A DNA stretch of 64,000 nt from Halostella limicola (GTDB taxonomy: Archaea > Halobacteriota > Halobacteria > Halobacteriales > Natronoarchaeaceae), in contig NZ_RCDI01000001.1 of assembly GCF_003675875.1 (NCBI RefSeq), positions 1,116,001 to 1,180,000 of the forward strand, written 5' to 3'. The position numbers and the translations under genes were made by a program. Below the pieces are notes generated by a model. That model made no database searches. It was not told where the DNA came from and worked only from the letters and a program-made list of their open reading frames with translations. Positions 34,010 through 40,237 of the stretch are shown here, piece after piece (positions within the stretch are counted from its first letter, which is position 1; each line of letters starts with the position of its first letter).

Positions 34010-34912
34010 TCACTGCGGGTCGTCGGACTCGTCGGAGTGCGCCCGCACCCACAGCTCGCCGATGCGCGAGAGCCGCGTCCGGTAGGACTTCCCGTGGGAC
34101 TCCTGCTCGATGTACCCCTTTCCGCCCGGCCCCAGCCGGTCGACGTTGTAGATGACCTTCGACCGGAAGCTGTCGGTGTACTCCTCGTTGAGCTCCGCGG
34201 CCAGCGACTCCGCCAGCTCCGAGACGGACTCGAACTCGCCGCGCTCGCCGAGCTTGTAGAGGATGAGCTCCTCGAACGGCTTGACGTTCGAGAACGAGGC
34301 AACGGGGAGCTCGACGATGTGGTCGCCCCCGATCTCCTTCGCACCGATGGTCGTCCCGCGCTCGTCGAACTCCGCGAGCAGGTCGCGGGCGCTGTCGAGG
34401 CGGTCGTCCACGCGCTCGTCGTCCACCCCGTCCTCGCGGAGGTCCTCGAGCAGGTCCATCTGCGCCCGGAGCTCCTCGGCGAGTTCGGTCTCCAGGTACT
34501 TCTCCGGCGCCGTGTAGTAGGTGTGGATCTGGTCGCGGTCGCCCTCGCGCTCGACCATGATCGAGTGGGCGGCCGTCGCGAACGCGAAGCTCACCGTGCG
34601 GGGCATCGCGCTGATGTTGACCCACACCTCGTTGCCGCCGTCGAGCTCCGCGTTGATCAGGTCGTACGCCTGCTTGAACGCGCTGTCGTAGTCGTACACG
34701 TCCGCGACGACGACGCGCTCCGTGCTCGCGCCCAGCAGGTTCCGGAAGTCCTTCTCCAGCTTCTCCGAGAGGTTCTGGGAGTACTCCACGTTCGCCTGGC
34801 TCCCGATGGCCCCCTCCAGCAGGATGACGCGGTCGACGTCCAACTGGTCGCGCACGAGCGGCGCGATCAGCCGGTCGTAGTCGAACCCGACCGGGACGAT
34901 GTGCGTCTGCAT
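34010..34912 (-). CDS. CARF-like/HTH transcriptional regulator, DUF6293 (HFX_2341) family
   Basis: The 300-residue protein has an N-terminal Rossmann-like domain (about 1-140) that begins MQTHIVPVGFDYDRLIAPLV. It carries VNISAMPRTVSFAFATAAH near residue 95, the position of the ligand-binding loop in CARF domains. A coiled helix links it to a C-terminal winged helix (about 205-295, FEELILYKLGERGEFESVSE). CARF proteins often sense cyclic oligonucleotides; whether this one does is inference. ATG 34912 is decided by the TATA box 23-31 bases upstream. The 28-bp repeat array lies directly beyond that promoter. No cas gene is seen in the window. Confidence 0.88.
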   Translation of the reverse strand: MQTHIVPVGFDYDRLIAPLVRDQLDVDRVILLEGAIGSQANVEYSQNLSEKLEKDFRNLLGASTERVVVADVYDYDSAFKQAYDLINAELDGGNEVWVNISAMPRTVSFAFATAAHSIMVEREGDRDQIHTYYTAPEKYLETELAEELRAQMDLLEDLREDGVDDERVDDRLDSARDLLAEFDERGTTIGAKEIGGDHIVELPVASFSNVKPFEELILYKLGERGEFESVSELAESLAAELNEEYTDSFRSKVIYNVDRLGPGGKGYIEQESHGKSYRTRLSRIGELWVRAHSDESDDPQ

Positions 34913-34934
34913 ACGTGGGACGTGGGGTTGGCGC

Positions 34935-34943
34935 TTATATAAA
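34935..34943 (-). promoter_or_regulatory. TATA box of the DUF6293 gene
   Basis: TTATATAAA (TTTATATAA on the coding strand) lies 23-31 bases upstream of ATG 34912. The repeat array begins 11 bases further upstream, next to the position where TFB contacts the promoter. Confidence 0.65.
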
Positions 34944-34953
34944 GCACCAGCAT

Positions 34954-35065
34954 CCCGACCACTCAATTGCACATCGCCAATCCCGACCACTCAATTGCAC
35001 ATCGCCAATCCCGACCACTCAATTGCACATCGCCAATCCCGACCACTCAATTGCACATCGCCAAT
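34954..35065. repeat. Four perfect 28-bp tandem repeats upstream of the DUF6293 promoter
   Basis: Units at 34954-34981, 34982-35009, 35010-35037 and 35038-35065 are identical over all 28 bases, with no spacers. The centre of each unit is CACTCAATTGCACATCG, containing the palindrome CAATTG. Because 28 is not a multiple of three, any reading frame through it rotates, so it is not a coding repeat. The array starts 11 bp upstream of the TATA box of the regulator gene and ends about 145 bp before the next rightward ORF. Confidence 0.95.
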
Positions 35066-35210
35066 GTGCTCCCTCCGCTACGTATAGGGCTTCGTAAGAA
35101 TCGATGCCCGAAGGGGCCTTAGTGGTTCCCCTCAGGATTGCGGGAAATGACGAAGGAATTAAGAGAAATTCTCCTATACGAAGTGAGTCCGAGTTTCGGA
35201 ATCCTCTCTA

Positions 35211-35573
35211 ATGGGTACGATAGTCAGTCTTCTGAAAGAAGCGGAACAACACATCGAGGAGGCGCAAAGACAAAGGAACGGGTTAGTTTGCCGCCTCGAT
35301 GAATTGATCCAGTTCGGAGGACTGGTAGTTGGAACACTCGACAGCGTCCGCGAGCGCACATTTAGTCACCCGCTCTCCGAAATTCCCTATTTTCGAGAGC
35401 ATTTTCAGCGCATCACGCGGGGTACTACAATCTCAGAGTGCTGGGTAGATGGAAGCTCTCAGAAACAAGCGATAACCTCGAACAATCCAGTTCATCGAGG
35501 GCAGGGAGACCCCAAAAAGTTCGTCATCTGGAAGGTGCTACTGAAGAATCAGGTTCACACTGGAATCTATTAG
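35211..35573 (+). CDS. Unrecognised ORF in low-GC segment, 120 aa
   Basis: The ORF begins MGTIVSLLKEAEQHIEEAQR, a helical and possibly coiled-coil start, and continues FGGLVVGTLDSVRERTFSHP. Base composition is clearly lower in GC than the surroundings, in line with neighbouring genes 35.6-36.9 kb. No family is recognised. It may be a small foreign gene or a fragment; the first half looks the most protein-like. Confidence 0.45.
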   Translation: MGTIVSLLKEAEQHIEEAQRQRNGLVCRLDELIQFGGLVVGTLDSVRERTFSHPLSEIPYFREHFQRITRGTTISECWVDGSSQKQAITSNNPVHRGQGDPKKFVIWKVLLKNQVHTGIY

Positions 35574-35594
35574 TCTGGCTCCCGTCGAACTTAT

Positions 35595-36092
35595 ATGGTT
35601 GAACTGGACAACGTGGACCGGGGTATCCTGCACGAACTCCAGCTCGATGCGCGGAATCGGACCGCCAAAGAGATCGCTGACAAGGTTGATACGTCTGCCA
35701 GCACTGTTCGGAATCGAATTGAAGAACTCGAAGCCAATGGGATTATCGAAGGCTATCACCCGAAAATCGACTATGAGAAGGCGCACCTCCCGCTTCAGAT
35801 CCTGTTCGTCTGCTCAGCACCGCCGTCGGAACGGTCAGAGATGGTCGAACAGATACTTGACATTCGTGGTGTGGTGGACGTTCGGGAAACATTAACTGGC
35901 AATCGGAACCTCTACGTCGAGGCAGTCGGGACCGACACAGGCGATACTTCCCGCATTACCGACGCTCTACACGACTCTGGCCTCTTGATCGAGAGTTCTG
36001 AAATCCTTCGCCAGCGCCGGGTGCAACCATTCAATCATTTCTTCTTTACTGATCCGTACGACAACCAGGACGATACTGACGACAACGAGTGA
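35595..36092 (+). CDS. Lrp/AsnC family transcriptional regulator in low-GC segment
   Basis: The 165-residue protein has an N-terminal winged helix (LDNVDRGILHELQLDARNRT, then AKEIADKVDTSASTVRNRIE) and a RAM-like domain with FVCSAPPSERSEMVEQILDI and LTGNRNLYVEAVGTDTGD. It ends in an acidic tail. Its codon usage is less GC-biased than that of the Lrp at 1.6-2.0 kb, and the two proteins are not close copies. It lies 21 bp after the unknown ORF. The targets are unknown. Confidence 0.85.
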   Translation: MVELDNVDRGILHELQLDARNRTAKEIADKVDTSASTVRNRIEELEANGIIEGYHPKIDYEKAHLPLQILFVCSAPPSERSEMVEQILDIRGVVDVRETLTGNRNLYVEAVGTDTGDTSRITDALHDSGLLIESSEILRQRRVQPFNHFFFTDPYDNQDDTDDNE

Positions 36093-36270
36093 ACGCACAC
36101 CGTTTGACCGCTCGACGATTGTGGAAAACACAATTTCACGGATGTATTTTGAGATAATCAACACTGCCCTGTGTGGGAACCTGAAGTAGAGCGACTGAGA
36201 CTGCGGAATACATAAAGTATAATATATTAGCAAAACAATGCTTATCCCGCTCACGGCCTTCCATATAGGT

Positions 36271-36633
36271 ATGACCAAGCCCTCAGAAATGGAACCGACG
36301 GAGTTTGACACGGGCGGCAACCGACAAGACGAACTCTTTGACGTGCTGTCTCATCAACGCCGGCGATTCCTACTTCACGCTTTGCAGACCGCTGAAACAC
36401 CGGTTCAGATCGAGGAGTTAACGACGGAACTCGTGGTGTGGGAGACCCAACAACCTGTTCCCAACCGCTCCGGCGATGACAGGACTGCGATTGAGGTTTC
36501 TCTGGTACACAACCATCTCCCAAAGATGGCCCAGGCGGGACTCATTAGATACGACGAGACTGAACAGACAGTGATGCTTGCTGACCGGACTGATGAGGTC
36601 AAAGCGCACCTCCAGACGATGGCAAGCGACTAA
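36271..36633 (+). CDS. DUF7344-like winged-helix protein
   Basis: The 120-residue protein shows the haloarchaeal HTH pattern QDELFDVLSHQRRRFLLHAL near residue 20, IEELTTELVVWE near residue 47 and VSLVHNHLPKMAQAGLIRYD near residue 80. It is probably a DNA-binding regulator. The DUF7344 assignment is from memory. ATG 36271 (MTKPSEMEPTEF) is preferred to an in-frame ATG 33 bases upstream. An AT-rich stretch with TATAATATATTA near 36217-36228 precedes it. Confidence 0.8.
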   Translation: MTKPSEMEPTEFDTGGNRQDELFDVLSHQRRRFLLHALQTAETPVQIEELTTELVVWETQQPVPNRSGDDRTAIEVSLVHNHLPKMAQAGLIRYDETEQTVMLADRTDEVKAHLQTMASD

Positions 36634-36648
36634 CCACTGATAGCGACT

Positions 36649-36879
36649 ATGAACTTCATTGCCAAGTGGATAGGCTCGGTTGAGAGGAGGTTCCGGAGTA
36701 CTACTGACCAAGAGGACACGGGAAATGACACAGAGACGCCACCGCGAGATGAGTCACGATCATCGTTGTTCTACTGTCCGGATTGCACAACGGTCTATAT
36801 CGATACAGACAAAAACACTTGCTTGACCTGTGACACGCCCGTCGATCAAATTCAATCGACGTTAGCTAAAACGGTATAG
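36649..36879 (+). CDS. Small zinc-ribbon protein, 76 aa
   Basis: The protein begins MNFIAKWIGSVERRFRSTTD and has a C-terminal zinc ribbon, YCPDCTTVYIDTDKNTCLTC, giving CxxC at about residues 43-46 and 59-62. It lies 15 bp after the winged-helix gene, so the two are likely co-transcribed. The pair could act together, the ribbon binding RNA polymerase or another protein; that is inference. Confidence 0.75.
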   Translation: MNFIAKWIGSVERRFRSTTDQEDTGNDTETPPRDESRSSLFYCPDCTTVYIDTDKNTCLTCDTPVDQIQSTLAKTV

Positions 36880-36946
36880 TTCTATACTGAGTGTCAGTCT
36901 TTCATCCTTATCTATCCTGAGTTTCGCTTCATCGAGGAGACGGAAG

Positions 36947-37255
36947 CTACTGGCCTATCAGTGGTGTGCAGATCAAACGGAGTTCACCCCTTGCTTGAGA
37001 CGCCGGAATTGACGGGTCTTGGATACGGGAAAACCGAGAGAATGGAGGGACTGTTCCGAAGCAACTTATACGCGATCTGTCCTTCCAGTCGTCGGCGTTC
37101 GAGACGTCGACCTCGATCTCGATCCCGCAGCCCTCGCAGTAGAACGGGACCGTGCGGTACCCCGGCTGGAACTCCTCCCATTCGCCGTGCTCGTCGCACT
37201 CGACGCGGATCCCCCGCTCCCGGCCGTCGGGAACCTCGACGGTGTACTCTGTCAT
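36947..37255 (-). CDS. Zinc-finger-like small protein with a possibly replaced C-terminus
   Basis: The GC-rich N-terminal part reads MTEYTVEVPDGRERGIRVEC, then FQPGYRTVPFYCEGCGIEIE and VDVSNADDWKD, a typical haloarchaeal mini zinc domain with CEGC. After residue 62 the frame runs into a lower-GC, Ser/Pro/Arg-rich tail (RISCFGTVPPFSRFSRIQDP) ending at 36947. The switch in composition near 37070 suggests that the native stop was lost at the junction with the low-GC segment. Confidence 0.55.
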   Translation of the reverse strand: MTEYTVEVPDGRERGIRVECDEHGEWEEFQPGYRTVPFYCEGCGIEIEVDVSNADDWKDRSRISCFGTVPPFSRFSRIQDPSIPASQARGELRLICTPLIGQ

Positions 37256-37372
37256 GCCTGTCTCACCCCCGTTCCGGCTGTGAGATCGCTTTGTGGAGGG
37301 AGCACGTAAAGGTGGTCGCAGGGGTTCGCGGGGTGCATCCTTATCACGGCTGCCGCGGAACGTACTGGAGTT

Positions 37373-38740
37373 ATGAGATTTCTCGTCTGCTCGCTCGACG
37401 CCGCCCTCGCCGGCGACCTCGCGTGGCAGCTGCACCGGGAGGGACACGACGTGAAGTACTACGTCGAGTCCGAGACGGACCAGGACATCGCCGACGGGTT
37501 CGTCCCGAAGACCGACGACTGGCGCGCGGAGGTCGACTGGGCCGACGTCGTCATCTTCGACGACATCTGGGTCGGGGACGGCGTCGGGTCCGGCGCGATC
37601 GCCGAGGAGCTCCGCGAGGAGGGCCACGCGGTCGTCGGCGGCACCCCGAACACCGACCGTCTGGAGGAGGACCGCGGCTACGCGATGGAGGTGCTGGAGG
37701 AGAACGGCGTGCCCACGATCCCGCACCGGGAGTTCACCGACTTCGACGAGGCGGTCGCGTTCGTCGAGGCGAACCCCGCGCCGTACGTCGTGAAGCCGCT
37801 TGGCGAGGTCCAGAACGTCAAGCGCCTGCTGTACGTGGGACGCGAGGACGACGGGAGCGACGTGGTCGAGGTCCTCCGGGCCTATGAGAAGGCCTGGGGC
37901 CACCGGATGAAGGGGTTCCAGCTACAGCGACGCGTCGAGGGCGTCGAGATCGCGGTCTGCGGCTTCTTCGACGGCGACGAGTTCGTCGAGCCGATCAACT
38001 TCAACTTCGAACACAAGAAGCTCTTCCCGGGTAACGTGGGACCGTCGACCGGCGAGATGGGAACCTCGATGTTCTGGGCGGGCCGCAACGAGCTGTTCTC
38101 GCGGACGCTCGGCCAGTTAGAGAGCTGGCTCGCCGCGGAGGGGTACGTCGGGAGCATCGACGTCAACTGCATCGTCGACGAGTCGGGGGTGTATCCGCTG
38201 GAGTTCACGCCCCGGTTCGGCTACCCCACCATCACGCTGCAGGAGGAGTCGTTCGAGTCCGACACCGGACAGTTCTTCTACGACCTGGCGCACGGGAACG
38301 ACCCGGAGCTAGCGGTTCACAACGGCTACCAGATCGCCGTCCGCGTCGTGCTCCCGCCGTTTCCCTTCGACGACGAGGAGACCTACGACGAGAGTTCGCG
38401 CAACGCCGCCATCGTCTTCGACGCGGTGGACGGACCGGGCGACGCGGGCGACCCGCCCGAGGGCGTCCACATCGAGGACGCGAAGCGGGTGCCCGTCGAC
38501 GGCGCGACCGCGGCAGCGGACGGGACGGTTCCCGACGGGCAGTGGCGCGCCGCGGGCGAGTCCGGGATGCCGCTGGTCGTCACCGGGAAGGGCGAGACCA
38601 TGCGGGCGGCGCGGGAGCAGGCGTACGACCGGGTCGACGACGTGCTCCTGCCGAACTGCTACTACCGCGACGACATCGGCGAGCGGTGGATAGACGGCGA
38701 CGGCGACCGCCTGGGGGCGTGGGGCTACCTCGGCCCCTGA
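37373..38740 (+). CDS. ATP-grasp ligase, phosphoribosylamine-glycine ligase (PurD)-like
   Basis: The 455-residue protein has an N-terminal Rossmann-like domain (MRFLVCSLDAALAGDLAWQL), then an ATP-grasp fold. PYVVKPLGEVQNVKRLLYVG is near residue 138, GVEIAVCGFFDGDEF near residue 190, and YPLEFTPRFGYPTITLQEES near residue 275. It resembles PurD but diverges in the substrate regions, so the acceptor may not be phosphoribosylamine. A TATA box CCTTATCAC is at 37339-37347. Neighbours give no pathway clue. Confidence 0.85.
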   Translation: MRFLVCSLDAALAGDLAWQLHREGHDVKYYVESETDQDIADGFVPKTDDWRAEVDWADVVIFDDIWVGDGVGSGAIAEELREEGHAVVGGTPNTDRLEEDRGYAMEVLEENGVPTIPHREFTDFDEAVAFVEANPAPYVVKPLGEVQNVKRLLYVGREDDGSDVVEVLRAYEKAWGHRMKGFQLQRRVEGVEIAVCGFFDGDEFVEPINFNFEHKKLFPGNVGPSTGEMGTSMFWAGRNELFSRTLGQLESWLAAEGYVGSIDVNCIVDESGVYPLEFTPRFGYPTITLQEESFESDTGQFFYDLAHGNDPELAVHNGYQIAVRVVLPPFPFDDEETYDESSRNAAIVFDAVDGPGDAGDPPEGVHIEDAKRVPVDGATAAADGTVPDGQWRAAGESGMPLVVTGKGETMRAAREQAYDRVDDVLLPNCYYRDDIGERWIDGDGDRLGAWGYLGP

Positions 38741-38767
38741 CGGCTCGAGTCGGCTGCCCCCGACGCG

Positions 38768-40237
38768 TCAGTCCGCGCGCAGGCCGTCGAAGTAGACGCT
38801 CGCGTCCTCCTCGGCCGCCGCGGAGGTGGCCGCCGAGGCTGCGACGGTCAGCACCAGGCCGACCAGCATCCCGACGACGCTCGGGGTCCACCCCCCGTAG
38901 TCCGCGGGGAACGCCCCGACGAACACGTGCGCCGCGTAGAACAGCTGGCTCGCGACGATGCCGACCGTGATCCCCGTCCGGGTGGTCCGGCGCCAGTACA
39001 GCGCGACGGCGACCGGGAGCGCGAGCTGGGCGAACCCGCCGAACGCGGCGTCGCCGATCTGGAACAGCGTCGCCGGCCGGGTGAGGCTGACGAGGAACGT
39101 CGCGACGGCGAAGGCGACGACGCCGACCCGGGCGACCAGGTCCTCCTTGCGCTCGCTGGCGTCCTGCTCGACGTACGGCCGGTAGATGTCGCGGGTGAAG
39201 TAGGAGGAGCCGGACAGCAGCATCGAGTCCGAGGAGCTCATCATGGCGGCCATGGCGCCAGCGATCACCAGCGCGGCGAACCAGCCGGGGGTGTACTCGT
39301 TGAGCAGCGCGGGGAGGATGTTGCCGCTCTCGGGCATCGCGACGCCGAGGCCGGCCGCCCACGCGCCGAGCATGAACGCGGGGACGAAAAGCAGGATCAC
39401 CAGCACGGGCCACAGCGCGAACGAGCGCTTGAGGACGGTCTCGGAGCGCGCGACGAAGAAGCGCTGGTTCACCTGCGGGAACATGGTCACCCCGAAGGCG
39501 ATGCCGATAGCCTGCGAGAGCATCCACTGCGGCGAGTAGACCCCGCCGCCGAGCGCGAGGAACTCGGGGCGGTTCTCGGCGAGCGCCCCCGTCGCCGCGC
39601 CGAGGCCGCCGACCGAGGACAGCACCCACAGGGTCGCGGCCCACACCATGACGAGCATGAACGCGCCCTGGAGCGTGTCGGTCCAGGCGATGCCGCGCAT
39701 CCCCGCGAGGACGACGTAGGCGATCATGAAGGCGGTGATGAGGCCCGCGCCCATCGCGTACGACACCGTCCCGTCGGTCAGCGCCTCCAGCGCGGTGCCC
39801 GCGCCGACCTGCTGGAGCATCACGTACGGGAACAGCCAGAACAGGCTGACGCCCGCGACGAGGCCGCGCAGCGCCGTCGATCCGAACCGGTCGCCGAGCA
39901 TCTCGCCCAGCGTCACGTAGCCCTGTTCGCGGCCGATCAGCCACTGCTTGTACCCGAGCACGTACCAGAGGATCCCGAACAGGACGCCGTCCATCAGCCC
40001 CATCACCAGAATCCACTCGGGGCCGTTCGCGAAGGCGATGTTCGGCCCGGCGAAGAAGGTGAACGCCGACAGCAGGGTGGCGAACGTCGTGAAAAGCAGG
40101 ACGACCGTGCCGAGCGTCCGGCTCGCGAGGTAGTAGTCCTCGGCCGAGCGGTCAGTCAGCCGGTAGGCGACCAGCCCGACTCCGAGCGCCAGCAGGAGGT
40201 ACGCGCCGATGATCGCGAGCTGCGTCGCGGCGCTCAC
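38768..40237 (-). CDS. Sodium:solute symporter (SSS) family permease
   Basis: The 489-residue protein has about 13 membrane helices, with family features such as RTLGTVVLLFTTFATLLSAF near residue 40, YVLAGMRGIAWTDTLQGAFM near 155 and AGAMAAMMSSSDSMLLSGSS near 320, where the Ser-rich sodium site lies. Its start overlaps the stop of the DUF3311 gene by four bases, the usual PanF/YhdT-like pair. The substrate is unknown; divergence from thiC suggests thiamine or a precursor as a candidate. Confidence 0.92.
   Translation of the reverse strand: MSAATQLAIIGAYLLLALGVGLVAYRLTDRSAEDYYLASRTLGTVVLLFTTFATLLSAFTFFAGPNIAFANGPEWILVMGLMDGVLFGILWYVLGYKQWLIGREQGYVTLGEMLGDRFGSTALRGLVAGVSLFWLFPYVMLQQVGAGTALEALTDGTVSYAMGAGLITAFMIAYVVLAGMRGIAWTDTLQGAFMLVMVWAATLWVLSSVGGLGAATGALAENRPEFLALGGGVYSPQWMLSQAIGIAFGVTMFPQVNQRFFVARSETVLKRSFALWPVLVILLFVPAFMLGAWAAGLGVAMPESGNILPALLNEYTPGWFAALVIAGAMAAMMSSSDSMLLSGSSYFTRDIYRPYVEQDASERKEDLVARVGVVAFAVATFLVSLTRPATLFQIGDAAFGGFAQLALPVAVALYWRRTTRTGITVGIVASQLFYAAHVFVGAFPADYGGWTPSVVGMLVGLVLTVAASAATSAAAEEDASVYFDGLRAD

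What the first reader, a model, noticed from the sequence alone, without database searches (positions are those of the whole stretch)
34954..35065. Four perfect 28-bp tandem repeats abut the promoter of a CARF-like regulator
All four 28-base units are identical, have no spacers and lie 11 bp upstream of the TATA box of the DUF6293 gene. Perfect identity implies recent expansion or selection. The location suggests an iterated binding site controlling the regulator, perhaps by the regulator itself, or a length-variable switch in which copy number tunes expression. Each unit contains CAATTG and lies in an AT-richer stretch. A coding role is unlikely because the frame shifts at each unit.
Basis: partly seen in the sequence, partly recalled or inferred. 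Interest (0 to 1): 0.75.

Follow-up and report, generated by a model that had tools for sequence, protein, structure and literature searches.

The report
Fourfold repeat beside a haloarchaeal repressor promoter
A salt-loving archaeon has copied a 28-letter piece of the control region of a global repressor gene (crr) four times in a row; the piece comes from an old, partly conserved stretch of that control region, but the copying is found in this one species and looks like recent, probably unselected, repeat expansion.

Summary
The array is real: a perfect period-28 run at 34952-35065 (114 bp = four units plus 2 bp). It lies 8 bp upstream of the TATA box of the probably leaderless HFX_2341/crr orthologue (DUF6293; a published repressor). 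It is not a dispersed operator: the unit is absent, at up to 3 mismatches, from the rest of this genome and from 391 other Halobacteriales genomes. Nor is it foreign: undoing three copies restores a sequence that aligns without gaps, in ATG register, with the crr upstream region of several other haloarchaeal genera (leave-out profile score 33 bits; background maximum -3.7 in 3946 windows). The array is therefore a species-specific tandem amplification, with 2-bp AT microhomology, of native promoter-upstream DNA. That DNA belongs to a ~100-bp block which a few genera keep at 84-95% identity, mostly above crr's own coding DNA; in Halostella the block is decaying. A second perfect array of similar size (29 bp x 4.4), also absent from relatives, sits at the 3' end of an unrelated gene on the same replicon, so array formation is not specific to crr. 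Best reading: near-neutral repeat expansion, core promoter untouched. A tuning role is possible but untested.

The parts
34952..35065 (.). Perfect tandem array, period 28, 4.07 copies (four full units from 34954 plus 2-bp AT overlap)
34952..34979 (.). Promoter-proximal copy of the unit; homologous, ungapped, to single-copy crr-upstream DNA of other genera
34935..34951 (-). Core promoter of crr: CTGGTGC (BRE position) + TTTATATAA; conserved in G004 and many orthologues
34010..34912 (-). crr / HFX_2341 orthologue (300 aa; PF19810 + PF24989), probably leaderless
   Evidence: function of the family from PMC11434293
35066..35135 (.). Diverged remainder of the conserved crr-upstream block (native distal flank of the array); outer limit approximate
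   Evidence: alignment

Best explanation
The array is a recent, species-specific tandem amplification of 28 bp of native DNA just upstream of the crr core promoter. Shown: the ancestral single copy can be reconstructed (GCAC-ATTGGCGATGTGCAATTGAGTGGTCGGG-ATGCTGGTGC-TATA on the crr strand) and is homologous to single-copy crr-upstream DNA in other genera; the copies are identical, share a 2-bp AT overlap at the junction, and are absent from relatives. Inferred: a first duplication at the AT microhomology was expanded by slippage or unequal recombination. It probably has little or no selected function, because the core promoter (CTGGTGC + TATA, leaderless start) stays intact downstream of it and the copied block is already decaying in this genus. 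At most it changes crr expression modestly by repeating a fragment of the old upstream block.
For: Perfect run with 2-bp overlap. Ungapped, unshifted match of the proximal unit to L131 19/28, L164 18, H. pelagica 17, L154/L161/L138 16, against a background maximum of 16 (once) in 3013 placements; reconstructed single copy scores 33.1 bits in a leave-out profile, background maximum -3.7 in 3946 windows. Array absent from all congeners and from 391 genomes. Block decaying in Halostella: middle missing in G004, not seen in G001 and G003, diverged here. Second perfect 29-bp x 4.4 array at an unrelated gene's 3' end on the same replicon, also absent from relatives. Unrelated non-coding arrays in other haloarchaea.
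Against: Its position 8 bp from the TATA box is where an activator or repressor site would lie, and the copied DNA stems from a segment conserved in other genera. Such perfect non-coding arrays are rare in this genome (2 in 1.92 Mb), and a second crr orthologue (Halopenitus persicus, L115) also has an upstream array, unrelated in sequence.
Confidence: 0.68

Rival explanations
1. Iterated regulatory site: the unit carries one binding module of the conserved crr-upstream block, and four copies tune crr transcription, by Crr itself or by another factor such as the Lrp/AsnC-type protein encoded on the adjacent insert.
For: Location directly upstream of the BRE/TATA; the unit overlaps the promoter-proximal end of a block kept at 84-95% identity in other genera; the gene encodes a regulator (PMC11434293).
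Against: No single copies before other genes; several positions invariant in the relatives' block are changed in the unit; the short palindrome is intact only at the distal edge; no binding site of this family is reported in PMC11434293.
Confidence: 0.2
2. Contingency switch: copy number changes at high frequency in the population and switches or scales crr expression.
For: Perfect identity allows slippage or recombination; direct repeats of similar length do mediate strain differences in haloarchaea (a 133-bp deletion in the rRNA promoter of Halobacterium salinarum via a 27-bp repeat, cited in PMC3119063).
Against: The array lies outside the core promoter, so TATA-to-start spacing does not change with copy number; no polymorphism data; no conservation of an array at this place in congeners.
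Confidence: 0.06
3. The array lies in the 5' part of a divergent small RNA or short ORF that shares the TATA box with crr and is encoded by the conserved block (a crRNA-like CreA RNA being one version).
For: The near-symmetric TATA could fire both ways. In relatives the opposite strand reads GTTTGCCGCCGCGCCCTCGTGGGCTTTC, with a CCCTCGTGGG hairpin reminiscent of haloarchaeal CRISPR repeats. In one frame nine sequences have no stop over 20 codons and more synonymous changes than in the other frames.
Against: Folds are no more stable than shuffles (z 0.68, -0.77 and -0.59). No Rfam match above chance. The 8-nt repeat-derived handle of CreA is not preserved. This genome has no Csh2/Cas7 of type I-B. 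The short ORF lacks a conserved start and is broken in L131 and L187.
Confidence: 0.03

Closest known systems
Intergenic minisatellite-type tandem repeats (VNTRs) of prokaryotes; in archaea best described for Borg elements (PMC9879509)
   Same: Perfect direct repeats of tens of bp, unit length not a multiple of 3, arising from local sequence, recent, differing between close relatives
   Different: Here on a haloarchaeal chromosome contig, only two such arrays in 1.92 Mb rather than pervasive, and the local source sequence can be traced to a block conserved in other genera
Direct repeats in the rRNA promoter region of Halobacterium salinarum (27-bp repeat, 133-bp strain-specific deletion; cited in PMC3119063)
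   Same: Direct repeats of about 27-28 bp in a haloarchaeal promoter region that can lose DNA
   Different: There a strain difference was observed; here no second strain is available
HFX_2341 / crr, CARF-like (Csa3a-like) repressor of haloarchaea (PMC11434293)
   Same: The downstream gene is an orthologue (PF19810 + PF24989)
   Different: No binding site or autoregulation is described there; the present genome lacks a type I-B csh2 gene

Membership tests
Intergenic tandem repeat / VNTR | Head-to-tail near-identical copies without spacers, outside coding sequence | tested here: met
   Perfect run, no spacers, no long ORF across it
Intergenic tandem repeat / VNTR | Copy number differs between strains | not testable with these tools
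   Only one genome per species is held; congeners have no array
Iterated operator of a regulator | Further copies of the site before other regulated genes | tested here: not met
   No copy at <=3 mismatches in this or 391 other genomes, none at <=8 in 1.26 Mb
Iterated operator of a regulator | Specific binding by a regulator | not testable with these tools
   Needs EMSA, footprinting or ChIP-seq
Iterated operator of a regulator | Site conserved upstream of orthologues | tested here: inconclusive
   A diverged single copy exists upstream of crr in several genera but not in most orthologues
CRISPR array or CreA-like minimal CRISPR | Repeats separated by spacers, or degenerate repeats with the conserved 8-nt 5' handle, plus type I cas effector genes | tested here: not met
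   No spacers; handle not preserved (sequences against the description in PMC8501985); no csh2
HFX_2341 / crr family (downstream gene) | HFX_2341_N domain above the curated cut-off | tested here: met
   PF19810 98.6 bits (cut-off 30), PF24989 122.1 bits (cut-off 27)

The most novel reading that the evidence does not exclude
The ~100-bp block upstream of crr is a conserved control module of this global repressor in several haloarchaeal genera, and in this Halostella species its promoter-proximal 28 bp was amplified fourfold under selection to reset crr dose after the rest of the block decayed.
Probability: 0.12. Interest if true: 0.55.

Novelty: new member of a known kind. Interest (0 to 1): 0.3.

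Why it matters
As an array it is ordinary: species-specific repeat expansion of local DNA, of which a second example lies about 52 kb away on the same replicon. Tracing its origin exposed something more useful: a block upstream of crr that a handful of genera keep at 84-95% identity while crr itself diverges more in most comparisons. No binding site is reported for this widespread haloarchaeal repressor family in the one paper found, so that block, and the natural single-copy/four-copy difference between species, gives a concrete place to look for one.

Tried and rejected
Regulon site: no further copies. Mobile-element or plasmid iteron: unit and flanks are native; no viral hit. CRISPR/CreA-like RNA: suggestive hairpin in the relatives' block, but handle, folding and cas genes fail. 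Rfam: nothing above chance. Conserved short ORF on the opposite strand: mild synonymous bias but no conserved start, a stop in L131 and a frameshift in L187. Operator palindrome around the TATA box (CTGGTG..CACCAG): only slightly above shuffles across 97 promoters (>=8 of 10 pairs in 7/97 against about 2% expected), and those sequences are related, so left as a lead. 11-bp inverted match GTGCTCCCTCC (35066) / GGAGGGAGCAC (about 37294), seen by eye as possible insert ends: not pursued. PDB profile search with the family alignment gave no hit, so the Csa3a likeness rests on the HHpred result in PMC11434293.

Full report
Observation. The window contains a perfect tandem array: four copies of CCCGACCACTCAATTGCACATCGCCAAT at 34954-35065, within a maximal period-28 run 34952-35065. 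It is the strongest tandem repeat in the 64 kb (TRF score 228). On the minus strand lies a 300-aa orthologue of HFX_2341 (PF19810 + PF24989), starting at 34912. Its TATA-like box TTTATATAA is 34943-34935, 8 bp from the run and about 27 nt from the ATG, so the transcript is probably leaderless. HFX_2341 was shown in Haloferax mediterranei to be a mainly negative global regulator that lowers cas transcripts when overexpressed, was proposed as 'crr', and has HHpred similarity to Csa3a (PMC11434293). The present genome has no type I-B csh2 gene.

Where it occurs. The window belongs to a Halostella genome: its congener G002 and locus L099, named Halostella pelagica, match in contig length and coordinates. 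The unit, at up to 3 mismatches, is found only at these four places among 392 Halobacteriales genomes including this one, and not in genome contigs or viral contigs (the window's own genome may be left out there). In 1.26 Mb of the same replicon nothing else comes within 8 mismatches. So it is not a dispersed operator.

What it derives from. Eighty-eight other orthologous crr upstream regions (H. pelagica counted twice) were compared in ATG register. The promoter element CTGGTGC + TTTATATAA is shared by G004 and many others (e.g. ACTGGTGCTTTATATAAACACC). The promoter-proximal 28 bp match, without gaps and without shift, the upstream DNA of L131 (19/28), L164 (18), H. pelagica (17), L154/L161/L138 (16); 3013 background placements gave at most 16, once. 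Collapsing the array to one copy gives GGGAGCACATTGGCGATGTGCAATTGAGTGGTCGGGATGCTGGTGC. This aligns on both sides with e.g. GGCAAACATCGGCGATGTGCGTATCAGCGGTCGGAAGACTGGTG (L131); its leave-out profile score is 33.1 bits against a background maximum of -3.7 in 3946 windows. The distal flank (GCAC before ATTGG) and the proximal flank (ATGCTGGTGC after GGG) are therefore both native, and the inner junctions GGG|ATTGG are new. The 2-bp AT shared by both ends is the microhomology expected of a tandem duplication. The mechanism of expansion (slippage or unequal recombination) is inferred.

The block. In L179-L185 (several genera of two other families) the stretch -118 to -33 from the crr ATG is kept at 84-95% identity pairwise, in most pairs more than the crr coding DNA (64-92% over the N-terminal domain, third positions 49-83%), while DNA further upstream is mostly unrelated. 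Thirteen of 392 genomes gave a match to the 101-bp query, nine of them strong. It is not a stable RNA fold (z between -0.77 and 0.68), has no Rfam match above chance, shows only a weak and broken short-ORF signal, and was not found in plasmids or viral contigs. In Halostella the block is decaying: G000 has a diverged copy plus the array, G004 lacks its middle, G001 and G003 show no block. The array thus sits in a region whose constraint appears relaxed in this genus; this last step is inference.

How unusual. In 1.92 Mb of this genome nearly all TRF arrays (period >=15, score >=70) are multiples of 3 inside long ORFs. Two perfect non-coding arrays of 3 or more copies exist: this one, and 29 bp x 4.4 at C2:1202955-1203081, at the 3' end of an unrelated gene, where alignments to all relatives stop at or before its first unit. 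Among 0.62 Mb around crr in other haloarchaea there are unrelated arrays too: 25 x 4.7 upstream of crr in Halopenitus persicus (L115, different sequence), 25 x 9.7 in G008 (L021), 17 x 3.5 in L172. The capacity to form such arrays is general; PMC9879509 describes the same style in archaeal Borg elements, and PMC3119063 cites a 133-bp strain difference via a 27-bp direct repeat in the rRNA promoter of Halobacterium salinarum.

Surroundings. Beyond the native flank, an insert of about 3.6 kb separates crr from the solute-symporter gene (38768-40237) that adjoins it in several relatives. It carries an Lrp/AsnC-type gene and a DUF7344 gene like those on haloarchaeal plasmids, and an ATP-grasp gene found in genomes of other families. 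G004 carries a different insert of about 7 kb at the same place.

Verdict. The stronger interpretation (iterated binding site or switch) has no positive evidence beyond position and the ancestry of the unit. The best-supported account is a recent species-specific tandem amplification of native crr-upstream DNA with little or no selected function (about 0.68); a regulatory role remains possible (about 0.2) and a contingency switch less likely (about 0.06).

Noticed in passing
L179-L187, L131, L152, L154 (about -118 to -33 from the crr ATG): A ~100-bp block upstream of crr is 84-95% identical between genera of two haloarchaeal families, mostly above crr coding identity, yet matches only 13 of 392 genomes. 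Function unknown; opposite strand has a CCCTCGTGGG hairpin and a weak short-ORF signal.
   Followed up: partly
G000:C2:1202955-1203081 (L096:2955-3081), outside the window: Second perfect non-coding array, 29 bp x 4.4, starting in the last codons of an unrelated minus-strand gene and absent from relatives.
   Followed up: yes
window 35150-38767: Lineage-specific insert between crr and a solute symporter: low-G+C Lrp/AsnC (35595-36092) and DUF7344 (36238-36633) genes resembling haloarchaeal plasmid genes, plus an ATP-grasp gene (37373-38740). G004 has a different ~7-kb insert at the same place, with a YgjP-like gene end next to crr.
   Followed up: partly
window 34930-34950 and orthologue promoters (e.g. 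L182, L181, L154, G004): Inverted repeat CTGGTG...CACCAG flanks the TATA box of crr in many orthologues; could be an autoregulatory operator or a symmetric promoter, but is only slightly above shuffles.
   Followed up: partly
L186 (G300:C2:about 1196221-1196312): The conserved block and promoter are intact but crr breaks off after about 17 codons (MQTHTVPVGFDYRPLTSL, then stop), as if the gene were deleted behind its control region.
   Followed up: no
L115:2327-2444: Halopenitus persicus crr has its own upstream array (25 bp x 4.7, about 92%), unrelated in sequence to the window's.
   Followed up: partly
window 35066-35076 and about 37294-37304: 11-bp inverted match GTGCTCCCTCC / GGAGGGAGCAC near the two ends of the low-G+C part of the insert; may be chance.
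   Followed up: no
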